Source: Lycium barbarum
Lineage: Eukaryota > Streptophyta > Magnoliopsida > Solanales > Solanaceae
Direction of reading: 5' to 3'
Assembly: GCF_019175385.1 (NCBI RefSeq)
Contig: NC_083344.1
Coordinates: 6,982,965-7,046,964 of the forward strand
DNA: 64,000 nt
The notes beneath the pieces were generated by a model. It made no database searches. It saw only the letters and a program-made list of their open reading frames with translations, and was not told the origin of the DNA. Every line of letters begins with the position of its first letter. Within the stretch, counting starts at the first letter, position 1. Below are positions 51,675 to 55,105 of this stretch, piece by piece. A program made the position numbers and the translations under genes.

Positions 51675-54600
51675 CTGTTGGAAAAACAAAAGCACCGTCA
51701 GTTAAAGGAAAAGTTTCTAAGAAGTTGCACAATAAGTGATCCACAGCATGAAGCATATCCATATTAACTGCTGCTAAGCGAACACAATAATCCCAAATGA
51801 GTTATGGTCGGCTAAGCAAAAACAATTTTCAACTTTAGTCTTGAATTCCTAAAGTAACAATTATTTTGGGACAAATTTTTTGAGCTAAAATGACAATTAC
51901 AATGGGACGGAGGGAGTAATTCATATAAGATTTAGGAAAACGAAACTGAAAAGAGAAATTGGAAAGGCTGCATATATGGGAGGCCACTGGCGCTAATCAG
52001 AATATTAGTTTTGCATCACCACGGCTCAAAGTTGTTTTGCATGTTGAACTAGACACCTAAGTAAACGAGTGAACGTCATTCATATGAATAGAGGATACTT
52101 ACAGCTAGGAGTTGTAAGTTTGAGGGTTCGGAAACAAATGTCATATAAAGCCTCGTTATCAAGAACCATGCACTCATCTGCGTTCTCCACAAGCTGATGA
52201 ACAGATAATGTGGCGTTGTAAGGCTCTACAACTGTGTCTGATACCTTTGGAGATGGGAAGACAGAGAATGTCAGCATCATCCTATCTGGGTATTCCTCTC
52301 TTATCTTCGAAATAAGAAGTGTCCCCATTCCAGATCCAGTCCCTCCTCCCAGGGAATGACACACCTGAAACCCTGCATATATAGTTCCACACATATATGT
52401 CATTCATCATTATAAGCAAGCCAAGATTCTCTTAAACTCTGATTCTCTAAATACACACACACACACCAGACTTAATGTGTGATAACATGGATACGGTCAC
52501 ATATAAAAAGAAATCACAAGCATCTATGAAATGGTAAAACAATATAACTTACCATATCAAAAGTAATCCCACCAGATAAACAAACAAGGATATGTACGAA
52601 CATTTAGACAGAACCTTGTAGACTATCACAATTTTAAGCCTCTCAAATTTACAAAACTATGGAACTTACAATATAAAAAACAATCCCACTGGTTAAGGAA
52701 TCAGTATAAGCATTTAAACAAATATTCTTGTAGGCAAACTCAATTGTAAACTTCTCAAACACATAAAATCATAGAACTTACAATAACAAAAGCAATCAGC
52801 AGAGTTAATAAATCAAAATTCACATAAAATATAAACAAAATACCTCGTAGGGAATCAAAATTCACAGCACCTTTATAAACAATCCCACTAGTTAACAAAT
52901 CAGGATAAACATTTATACAATCACCTAGTAGGCAATTTTAAGCTTCTCAAACCCAAAAAGTCAGACAAAAACAATCAGCACATGTTAACAAATCAAAGAA
53001 CACACAAACATTTAAACAAATACCTTGTAGGCAATCACAATTCTCAGCTTCTTTCCTCACAACATTGAGAACCGAATCAATCAACTCAGCACCCTCAGTA
53101 TAATGACCTTTTGGCCAACTATTCCCCGCACCGGAATGACCGAAAACAAAGTTAACAGGTCTAAAAATCTGAGAAAAGATTCTCCTAAAAGGTCCAGATC
53201 TAACACTGTCCATAATACCAGGCTCTAAATCCATAAGTACCGCAAGAGGTACAAAGCGCTCACAACTCGCCTCATTCTAAACTTCTAATATACATTTACC
53301 CTCTCAAAATATATTTATACCTGTATTTAGAATTCACAGCTATAGTTTCAAAAAAATTACAAAGCCTAGCCACATTTCTTATATGTAATGGTTTCAAAAA
53401 TTACGAAACATAGCTATAGTTTCAGAAAAATTACAAAACATAGCCACATTTCTTATATGCTTATGTTTAAGCTCCTTTACGAACAATATCAAAAACAAAC
53501 ATTTAAACCTTGTAGCAAACACAATTTTAAGCTTCTCAAACACATAATTCACATAAGCATTTAAACAAACACCTTGTAGGCAATCACAATTCTCACAAGG
53601 ATTTAAACAAACACCTTCAGTCACAATTCACAGAAACATTTAAACAAACACGTTGTAGGCAATTACAATCCACACAAACATTTAAACAAACAAACACCTT
53701 GTGCAATCAAAATTCACACAAACATTTAATCAAATACTCTGTAAGCAATCACAATTCTCAGCTTCTTTCCTCACAACATCAAGCACCGAATCAATCAACT
53801 CAGCACCCTCGGTATAATGTCCTTTCGCCCAATTATTCGCCGCACCCGACTGCCCAAAAACAAAGTTATCAGGTCTAAAATTCTGTCCGTAAGGTCCAGA
53901 TCTAACACTGTCCATAGTACCAGGTTCTAAATCCATAAGAACAGCACGCACAACTCACCTCGTTGTAATACACATTTACCCTCTCAAAATATATTTAGAT
54001 TGTATTTACGATACATAGTTTCAAAAAATTTAGACTATATTTACGATACATAGCTATACTTTCAAAAATATTACAAAACATAGCTACATAATTCACAGAA
54101 ACATTAATCAACTACCTTGTAGGCAATCAAAATTCGCACAAACATTTCATCAAATACCTTGTAGGCAATCACAATTCTCAGCTTCTTTCCTCACAACATC
54201 AAATACCCTGTAGGCAATCACAGTCCAGATCTAACACTGTCCATACTACTAAGTTCTAAATCCATAAGCACAGCACAAGGTACGAAACGCCCACAACTAG
54301 CCTCATTGTAATATACATTTACCCTCTCAAAATATATTTAGACTATATTTACAATCCATAGCTATAGTTTCAAAAAAATTATAAAGTTTAGCCACATTTC
54401 TTATATGATATAGTTTCAAAAAATTACGAAACATAGCTATAGTTTTAAATAAATTACAAAATGTAGGCACATTTCTTACATGCTTATGTTTAAGCTCCTT
54501 TACGAACAATATCAAAAACCAACATTTAAACCAGCTAGGCAAACACAATTGTAAGCTTCTCAAACACATAAATTCACATAAACATTTAAACAAACACATT

Positions 54601-55105
54601 GTAGCCAATCACAATTCACATAGACAGTTTAACAAACACCTTGTAGGCAAACACAATTCACATTTTAACAAACACCCTGTAGGCAAACACAATTCACATT
54701 TTAACAAATACCTTGTAGGCAATCACAATTCTCAGCTTCTTTCCTGACAACATCAAGAACCGAATCAATCAACTCAGCACCCTCCGTATAATGTCCTTTC
54801 GCCCAATTATTCCCCGCACCAGATTGCCCGAAAACGAAATTATCGGGTCTAAAAATCTGCCCATAAGGACCAGATCTAACACTGTCCATAGTACCAGGTT
54901 CTAAATCCATAAGAACAGCACGAGGTACGAAACGCCCACAACTCGCCTCGTTATAATATACATTTACCCTCTCAAGATGTGTATCGGTCTCCCCGTAATA
55001 AGCACCTGTGGAATCGATACCGTGTTCAGCACATACTACCTCCCAAAACTTAGCCCCGATTTGGTTGCCACATTGGCCACCTTGAATATGAAGGATTTCA
55101 CGCAT
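51001..55105 (-). CDS. TUBB: Beta-tubulin, 3 exons, 445 residues
   Basis: Exon 1 55105-54712 ([18 protein letters not shown]-terminal MREI autoregulation motif, nucleotide site), exon 2 52372-52103 (GGGTGSGMG tubulin signature), exon 3 51674-51001 (C-terminal half, acidic tail ending EEEAYHD, TAA 51003-51001). Spliced length 1338 nt = 445 codons plus stop, the normal beta-tubulin size, with no lesion. Introns are at the two positions conserved in plant beta-tubulins (after CLQ-G and inside PSF). Intron 2 is 428 bp (51675-52102). Intron 1 is 2339 bp (52373-54711) and is filled with partial exon 1 copies and donor repeats. Forms the beta subunit of microtubules, binding exchangeable GTP. TATA at 55217-55224. 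Confidence 0.95.
51835..51917. mobile_element. Stowaway remnant in tubulin intron 2
   Basis: The right end 'gggacggagggagta' is clear, and internal 'attattttgggacaaattttttgag' fits a Stowaway. The left terminus is not recognised, so the element is truncated or rearranged. Confidence 0.5.
52103..52372 (-). CDS. TUBB: Beta-tubulin exon 2
   Basis: 270 nt between ATATGCAG acceptor and AGCT|GTAAGT donor; carries the GTP-phosphate-binding glycine loop. Confidence 0.93.
53024..53300 (-). pseudogene. Partial beta-tubulin exon 1 copy c (intronic)
   Basis: Copies the second half of exon 1 from VYYNEASC to the donor, with an insertion in GPF(RRIFSQ)IFRP, a Trp-Ala to Trp-Pro change, and a disrupted start of the segment. 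No ATG of exon 1 or upstream part. The donor site is intact. Nearest to exon 2. Confidence 0.85.
53741..53998 (-). pseudogene. Partial beta-tubulin exon 1 copy b (intronic)
   Basis: Near-exact copy of the second half of exon 1, with a deletion of about 14 bases in the region coding CGRFVP and an altered donor (CTACAGAG|TATTTG), so it would not splice like the functional exon. Confidence 0.85.
54156..54330 (-). pseudogene. Partial beta-tubulin exon 1 copy a, internally deleted (intronic)
   Basis: Has the [13 protein letters not shown]...SVRSG part (54330-54221) joined, through an extra donor-like unit (54200-54215), directly to the last 15 or so codons of exon 1 and its donor. The central PYGQIFRP...IDSVL segment is missing. 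Confidence 0.8.
54712..55105 (-). CDS. TUBB: Beta-tubulin exon 1 (functional copy)
   Basis: 394 nt from ATG to CTACAAG|GTATTTG. It is the only exon 1 copy with a start codon, 5' UTR and TATA box, and the only one without deletions, so it is taken as the expressed exon. Confidence 0.92.

What the first reader, a model, noticed from the sequence alone, without database searches (positions are those of the whole stretch)
52373..54711. Beta-tubulin intron 1 filled with partial copies of its own exon 1 and with an array of decoy 5' splice sites
An intact beta-tubulin gene has three partial, variously deleted copies of exon 1 inside intron 1, and the short exon 1/donor junction is repeated at least fifteen times. 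Several copies keep a good CTACAAG|GTRTTTG donor. The first intron of plant tubulin genes is known to affect expression, so a field of competing donors could alter splicing or transcript choice; alternatively it is neutral microsatellite-like expansion that captured exon sequence. I know of no described case with this architecture.
Basis: partly seen in the sequence, partly recalled or inferred. Interest (0 to 1): 0.85.

Follow-up and report, generated by a model that had tools for sequence, protein, structure and literature searches.

The report
Tubulin intron of repeated splice-donor relics
The first intron of this plant beta-tubulin gene was built largely by duplicating the end of the gene's own first exon over and over, which left many look-alike splice sites that are probably harmless debris, although the same thing happened in some sister tubulin genes and some of the exon pieces look as if they were once working coding sequence.

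Summary
On the minus strand an intact 445-aa beta-tubulin gene has a 2339-nt intron 1 (52373-54711) holding three partial exon-1 copies and 18 units of [exon-1 end | donor]; at E<=0.01 no unit lies elsewhere in the 64 kb. Ten intact beta-tubulin genes were found. Own exon-1 ends recur in intron 1 of three (this gene, its sister, L014; L012 is equivocal), but at the same threshold in none of 6 alpha-tubulin first exons and 30 GTPase-family loci. The repeats grew by tandem duplication across the exon 1/intron 1 boundary, in at least two episodes; the older repeat recurs in orphan exon-1 fragments elsewhere and probably in the sister. Exon copies B and C differ from exon 1 mostly at third codon positions, so they probably had a coding phase; collapse of a tandem gene cluster fits, not proven. 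A regulatory role for the 'decoys' is not supported: donors are not clearly more conserved than other columns, unit donors are mostly no stronger than the weak true one, and reading past the true donor meets a stop at codon 135. No RNA data were available. Human IFI6 is a described donor minisatellite, so the architecture has a precedent.

The parts
54712..55105 (-). beta-tubulin exon 1 CDS (true exon), ends CTACAAG
52373..54711 (-). intron 1, 2339 nt, GTATTTG...TGCAG
52103..52372 (-). exon 2 CDS
51001..51674 (-). exon 3 CDS with stop
54577..54698 (-). first run of short (~36-42 nt) exon-end/donor units, donor G at 54675, 54639, 54597; a degraded unit follows with GT at 54531
54334..54545 (-). 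AT-rich block: degraded unit plus piece of a dispersed genomic repeat, directly before exon copy A
54225..54333 (-). partial exon-1 copy A, piece 1 (exon bases ~128-236, 91.7% to exon 1)
54158..54210 (-). partial exon-1 copy A, piece 2 (exon 3' end, ends CTACAAG before the GT at 54157)
54096..54229 (-). units with donor G at 54206, 54157, 54115
53991..54095 (-). shortened copy of the AT-rich repeat block before exon copy B
53738..53990 (-). partial exon-1 copy B (exon bases ~128-394 with a deletion), 88-91% to exon 1, differences biased to third positions
53495..53761 (-). run of units after copy B (donor G at 53737, 53697, 53651, 53614, 53572, 53508)
53311..53521 (-). third copy of the AT-rich repeat block, before exon copy C
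53024..53310 (-). partial exon-1 copy C (exon bases ~128-394 with insertions), 83-89% to exon 1
52596..53047 (-). wider-spaced units (81-117 nt apart): donor G at 53023, 52924, 52843, 52614; the unit at 52726 has lost its GT

Best explanation
Intron 1 grew by repeated tandem duplication across the exon 1/intron 1 boundary, in at least two episodes. Older: a unit of about 30 nt of exon-1 end, the donor and about 85 nt of intron start was multiplied; these units still fill much of the last 650 nt of the intron, and related units occur in orphan exon-1 fragments elsewhere and in the sister gene. Later: a larger segment (exon-1 bases ~128-394, short units, a piece of a dispersed repeat) was multiplied to give copies A, B and C. 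Copies B and C differ from exon 1 in a coding-like way, so they probably descend from formerly working exon 1 sequence, for instance a tandem gene whose front half was lost in a deletion from the repeat into exon 1. The intron is probably still spliced from the first donor, which lies where GC-richer exon meets AU-rich intron; the others are mostly passive debris, since reading past the first donor meets TAA at codon 135. Shown: anatomy, recurrence in paralogues, pattern of differences, stop codon. Inferred: order of events, the gene-collapse origin, use of the first donor.
For: Units and copies mapped. Exon-1 ends recur in own intron 1 in 3 of 10 beta-tubulins (24/24, 21/24, 22/24; P<0.001 each) with a fourth at 18/24 (P=0.002); in the same 10 genes exon-2 tail in intron 2, exon-2 head in intron 1 and in intron 2 give 0 of 10 each at P<0.05. 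0 of 30 PF00009 loci and 0 of 6 alpha-tubulin first exons reach 19/24. Sister L010 has 4 intronic units ~140-250 nt apart. Orphan fragments L018, L019, L020 carry 1, 3 and 2 units with matching intron sequence. The 57-nt exon piece in L010's intron is nearer to copy C (50/57) than to L010's own exon (47/57). WIN against copy B: 14 third-position and 4 first/second-position differences (P=0.003 under a dead-from-birth model); copy C 19 and 9 (P=0.013); dead orphan pair L018-L019 9 and 20. Exon 1 45% GC, intron 33%. Stop at codon 135.
Against: No transcript, read or orthologue data were available, so use of the first donor is not shown, and 7 of 18 unit donors pair with U1 as well as the true one or better. 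The coding-phase signal rests on 18 and 28 differences, uncorrected for the 19 pairs examined, and could come from gene conversion by a working paralogue. Copy A piece 1 (4 and 4) fits dead-from-birth; copy A piece 2 was not in that test (2 third, 3 other). B against C: P=0.003 if both were always dead, but P=0.085 under the model with one constrained side. No convincing relic of exon 2, exon 3 or the first 127 bases of exon 1 was found in the intron (best other hit 19 nt, E=0.003), which both collapse and simple partial duplication predict. The last block (copy C plus old intron) lacks the AT-rich repeat, which plain repeated tandem duplication does not predict. That the arrays of this gene and L010 predate their split is likely, not proven.
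Confidence: 0.68

Rival explanations
1. The donor field is functional: U1 binds many equal donors, so a fraction of transcripts uses a downstream donor or retains the intron, giving stop-containing mRNA that is degraded. The array would work like decoy exons and damp or tune tubulin output.
For: 7 of 18 unit donors pair with U1 as well as or better than the true donor. GT is kept in 21 of 22 intronic units of two sister genes and is the top-ranked of 45 pairs. Decoy exons linked to intron retention are described for human OGT and other genes (passages).
Against: Column by column GT is not special (23 of 44 columns at least as conserved as the T, 6 as the G); the count used four rows realigned by hand on the GT, which favours it. 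The 15 strongest predicted donors in the intron are not units. No transcript data.
Confidence: 0.1
2. The copies raise expression: exon 1 contains TTAGATCTG, the most active tested form of the plant intron-mediated-enhancement motif, and each of the three copies carries it into the intron.
For: TTNGATYTG occurs 4 times in intron 1 against 0.49 expected, 0 of 500 shuffles reach 4; L010 has 2 (P=0.016). Three of the four are TTAGATCTG inside copies A, B and C. The effect is dose-dependent in Arabidopsis (passages of PMC6760150).
Against: Three of the four came along with duplicated exon, so the enrichment is not independent. They lie 872, 1201, 1903 and 2109 nt from the ATG, mostly beyond the ~1 kb range reported. 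That the motif is kept more than its surroundings was not tested.
Confidence: 0.12
3. Only dead-from-birth partial tandem duplication of the present exon 1 is involved; no former working exon.
For: Copy A piece 1 fits (4 and 4 differences); B against C is not rejected with one side constrained (P=0.085). All copies share the same start point next to the AT-rich block.
Against: WIN-B P=0.003, WIN-C P=0.013 under this model; B against C P=0.003 if both were always dead.
Confidence: 0.3
4. Assembly artefact.
For: Tandem repeats are prone to misassembly; no reads were seen.
Against: The larger copies differ from exon 1 by 8-17% (copy A piece 2 by 2% over 45 nt) and from each other; the sister gene and orphan loci on other chromosomes carry related units.
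Confidence: 0.02

Closest known systems
Splice-donor minisatellite of human IFI6 (G1P3, 6-16)
   Same: Tandem repeats that provide multiple splice donor sites; downstream repeat units are used as donors (passage in PMC4526556 and the title of Turri 1995 in its reference list; the 1995 paper itself not seen)
   Different: There the units are very short (recalled) and give three mRNA species; here units are about 36-117 nt apart, include ~20-30 nt of coding exon, sit with large exon fragments, and reading past the first donor meets a stop; use not shown
Tandem genomic duplication across an intron-exon boundary (potato RdRp intron gain, PMC4974935; abstract and Results section read)
   Same: Tandem duplication spanning a splice boundary in a Solanaceae gene
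   Different: There the duplication crosses the end of intron 1 into exon 2 and a new intron arose; here the CDS still has two introns as in the nine other genes, and the duplicated boundary is the donor side, so the copies lie inside the intron
Plant beta-tubulin intron length polymorphism (TBP markers; passages of PMC6471244 and PMC2682935)
   Same: Same introns, known for variable length among genes and species
   Different: The passages seen speak of length; duplication of the exon-1 end as its source is not mentioned in them
Decoy exons in retained introns (OGT and others, passages of PMC12017769)
   Same: Exon-like sequences with splice sites inside an intron
   Different: Those are recognised by the spliceosome; here no recognition is shown, and whether the copies have a usable acceptor was not tested

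Membership tests
Intact plant beta-tubulin gene | Full-length open frame, 3 coding exons, intron 1 after ...NCDCLQ in phase 1, purifying selection | tested here: met
   445 aa; same coding-exon layout in 10 of 10 genes; WIN-L010 dN/dS 0.029
Splice-donor minisatellite (IFI6-like) | Tandem units each with a 5' splice-site sequence next to the real donor | tested here: met
   18 intronic units, 17 with GT at the junction
Splice-donor minisatellite (IFI6-like) | Downstream units used as donors in transcripts | not testable with these tools
   no RNA data held
Intron gain by tandem duplication | Duplication crosses a splice boundary | tested here: met
Intron gain by tandem duplication | A new intron appears | tested here: not met
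   two CDS introns as in the nine other genes; gene model from sequence, no transcripts
Intron-mediated-enhancement intron | Enriched TTNGATYTG close to the start of transcription | tested here: inconclusive
   4 against 0.49 expected, but 3 ride on exon copies and only the first is within 1 kb of the ATG
Decoy-exon retained intron | Splice sites selectively kept | tested here: inconclusive
   differ in strength; the hand-adjusted one favours GT
Decoy-exon retained intron | Intron retained in transcripts and decoys recognised | not testable with these tools
   no RNA data held

The most novel reading that the evidence does not exclude
Beta-tubulin intron 1 is a recurrent, family-specific site where the exon-1 end and its donor are copied back into the intron; in this gene the intron is a collapsed cluster of formerly working tandem tubulin genes, and the retained donors and TTAGATCTG motifs now tune output by unproductive splicing or enhancement.
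Probability: 0.1. Interest if true: 0.72.

Novelty: new variant of a known kind. Interest (0 to 1): 0.45.

Why it matters
It offers a natural test of how a plant spliceosome picks one donor among many nearly identical ones, and shows one concrete way in which plant tubulin first introns, used as length markers and known to affect expression, grow. If the coding phase of copies B and C is confirmed, the intron records the collapse of a tandem gene cluster into one gene.

Tried and rejected
Assembly artefact: judged unlikely on divergence and on related units at other loci. Selection on the GT: column test negative; pair test ranked GT first but used four hand-realigned rows, so not taken as evidence. 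Capture by a transposon end: the AT-rich block belongs to a dispersed repeat (23 matches, 3 of them in this intron), but homology among its copies runs ~25 nt beyond the point where the exon copies start, so the junction is not its terminus. Relics of other gene parts in the intron: none convincing. L012 as a fourth clear case: 18/24 at P=0.002 on the tail test, but another gene's exon 1 also scores 18 against that intron, so equivocal. Known RNA families: no match at gathering thresholds in 50800-55600. A bacterial-type promoter scan upstream is uninformative for a plant gene. Protein search (120 of 7977 listed) gave no lead on the intron. Paper searches for precedent; the library lacks most subscription journals.

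Full report
What is there. The window lies in a 1.67 Gb genome (G000:C8). On the minus strand an intact beta-tubulin gene reads 445 codons in three coding exons (55105-54712, 52372-52103, 51674-51001), the layout of the nine other beta-tubulin genes found (the family search gives the same ten full first exons). Intron 1 is 2339 nt, the longest of the ten (others 92-2170).

Anatomy of the intron, in transcript order: a run of short units after exon 1; an AT-rich block; exon copy A in two pieces with its units; a shortened AT-rich block; exon copy B with its units; an AT-rich block; exon copy C; and a last 650 nt of wider-spaced units down to exon 2. Each unit is the last ~20-30 nt of exon 1, the donor and the start of the intron. 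There are 18 intronic units at E<0.01, 17 with GT at the junction. Searched over the whole window and both strands, the 18 matches at E<=0.01 (true one included) fall in this gene.

Chance and controls. For each of 10 genes the last 24 nt of exon 1 were sought in its own intron 1 against 1000 Markov resamples: this gene 24/24, L010 21/24, L014 22/24 (each P<0.001), L012 18/24 (P=0.002), the other six P>=0.119. The same test with exon-2 tail in intron 2 and exon-2 head in intron 1 and in intron 2 gave no P below 0.05 in any of 10. With the last 150 nt of exon 1, three of ten genes reach 22 or more and the other seven 18 or less. As outside controls, 30 loci (of 49 matches) of PF00009 gave at most 18/24 (match ends there are not exact exon ends) and 6 of 7 fetched alpha-tubulin first exons at most 17/24 (L076 was dropped because no start was found, L072 shows no GT at the expected boundary, L073 has an in-frame stop).

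History. L010 is the sister gene (support 99/98; dS 0.845). Three other gene pairs have dS 0.63-0.82, near the KS ~0.65 peak reported for the triplication in Lycium (passages). L010's intron has four units 140-250 nt apart. Three orphan exon-1 fragments on C6, C10 and C11, with no exon 2 detected in the 8.5 kb fetched, carry 1, 3 and 2 units and intron sequence like the last 650 nt of this intron. L018 and L019 differ from this gene at 28 of 68 and 27 of 69 third positions, where this gene and L010 differ at 34 of 86. So the wide-spaced units are old. The AT-rich blocks are younger: blocks 0 and 2 differ by K 0.12, block 1 from them by 0.22 and 0.18. They belong to a dispersed repeat with 23 genomic matches, 3 of them in this intron.

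Coding-like differences. Between exon 1 and copy B 14 of 18 differences lie at third codon positions, between exon 1 and copy C 19 of 28; the codon at the junction and the last codon were left out (with them 15 of 21 and 19 of 30). Simulations in which exon 1 is constrained and the copy is dead from birth give means of 8.1 and 12.5 (P=0.003 and 0.013, 400 runs each). Copy A piece 1 (4 of 8) does not differ from that model. B against C gives 17 of 29 (P=0.003 if both were always dead, P=0.085 with one side constrained). The orphan pairs give 9 of 29, 3 of 7 and 4 of 10; working gene pairs 34 of 40, 11 of 17, 37 of 40 and 22 of 24. The three orphans against this gene (28 of 40, 27 of 43, 10 of 14) also show the excess, so they too probably had a coding phase (all; no correction for the 19 pairs). 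The likeliest origin of B and C is therefore former working exon 1 sequence, perhaps a tandem gene fused by deletion; gene conversion is the alternative.

Function. By in-register U1 pairing the true donor (-3.4) ranks 23rd of 222 GTs in the intron and 7 of 18 unit donors equal or exceed it; the 15 best sites are not units (for the units at 53697 and 53614 that script scored a neighbouring GT). Column by column, 23 of 44 other columns are at least as conserved as the T of the donor and 6 as the G, in the 22 intronic units of the two sisters. After four rows were realigned by hand on the GT, it is kept in 21 of 22 and ranks first of 45 pairs, next best 20; this is too weak and too dependent on the realignment to claim selection. 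Reading past the first donor meets a stop at codon 135. Plant introns are recognised by AU-richness (passage); exon 1 is 45% and intron 1 33% GC. Together this favours use of the first donor, which is not shown here.

[quoted passage not shown] It rides on the duplicated exon, so it is a hypothesis only.

Precedent. A human minisatellite with multiple splice donors is described (passage and reference; original not read), and a tandem duplication across a splice boundary in potato (abstract and Results). I found no description of the present architecture in a tubulin gene in the listings of searches; that library is partial.

Noticed in passing
L018 4349-4556, L019 4265-4475 and L020 4193-4292 (L019 and L020 counted on the gene-sense strand); G000 C6, C10, C11: Orphan exon-1 fragments with donor and intron-1 repeat units but no exon 2 detected; L019 and L020 share about 2 kb at 93%, and L018/L019 share upstream sequence that looks by eye like part of another gene.
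   Followed up: partly
L010, intron 1 (G000:C1, about 167118000-167119010): The sister gene's intron is itself an array of ~140-250 nt units, each with an exon-1 end and donor; by eye several units also hold an acceptor-like TGCAG.
   Followed up: partly
L014 gene, intron 1 bases 332-353: A single exact 22-nt copy of that gene's own exon-1 end, followed by GT, apparently independent of the window's gene.
   Followed up: partly
window 54334-54545 and about 20 other genomic places: Short AT-rich dispersed repeat with a TATAGCTATG-type core; no family name assigned.
   Followed up: partly
window 56892-57474: Two tandem copies of a 289-bp unit, 94% matches, upstream of the tubulin gene.
   Followed up: no
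window 31120-37883 and 40140-45033: Long open frames that look like LINE-type retrotransposon proteins (seen, recalled resemblance, not searched).
   Followed up: no
window 20433-27300: Leucine-rich-repeat receptor-kinase-like open frames in pieces on the minus strand (recalled resemblance, not searched).
   Followed up: no
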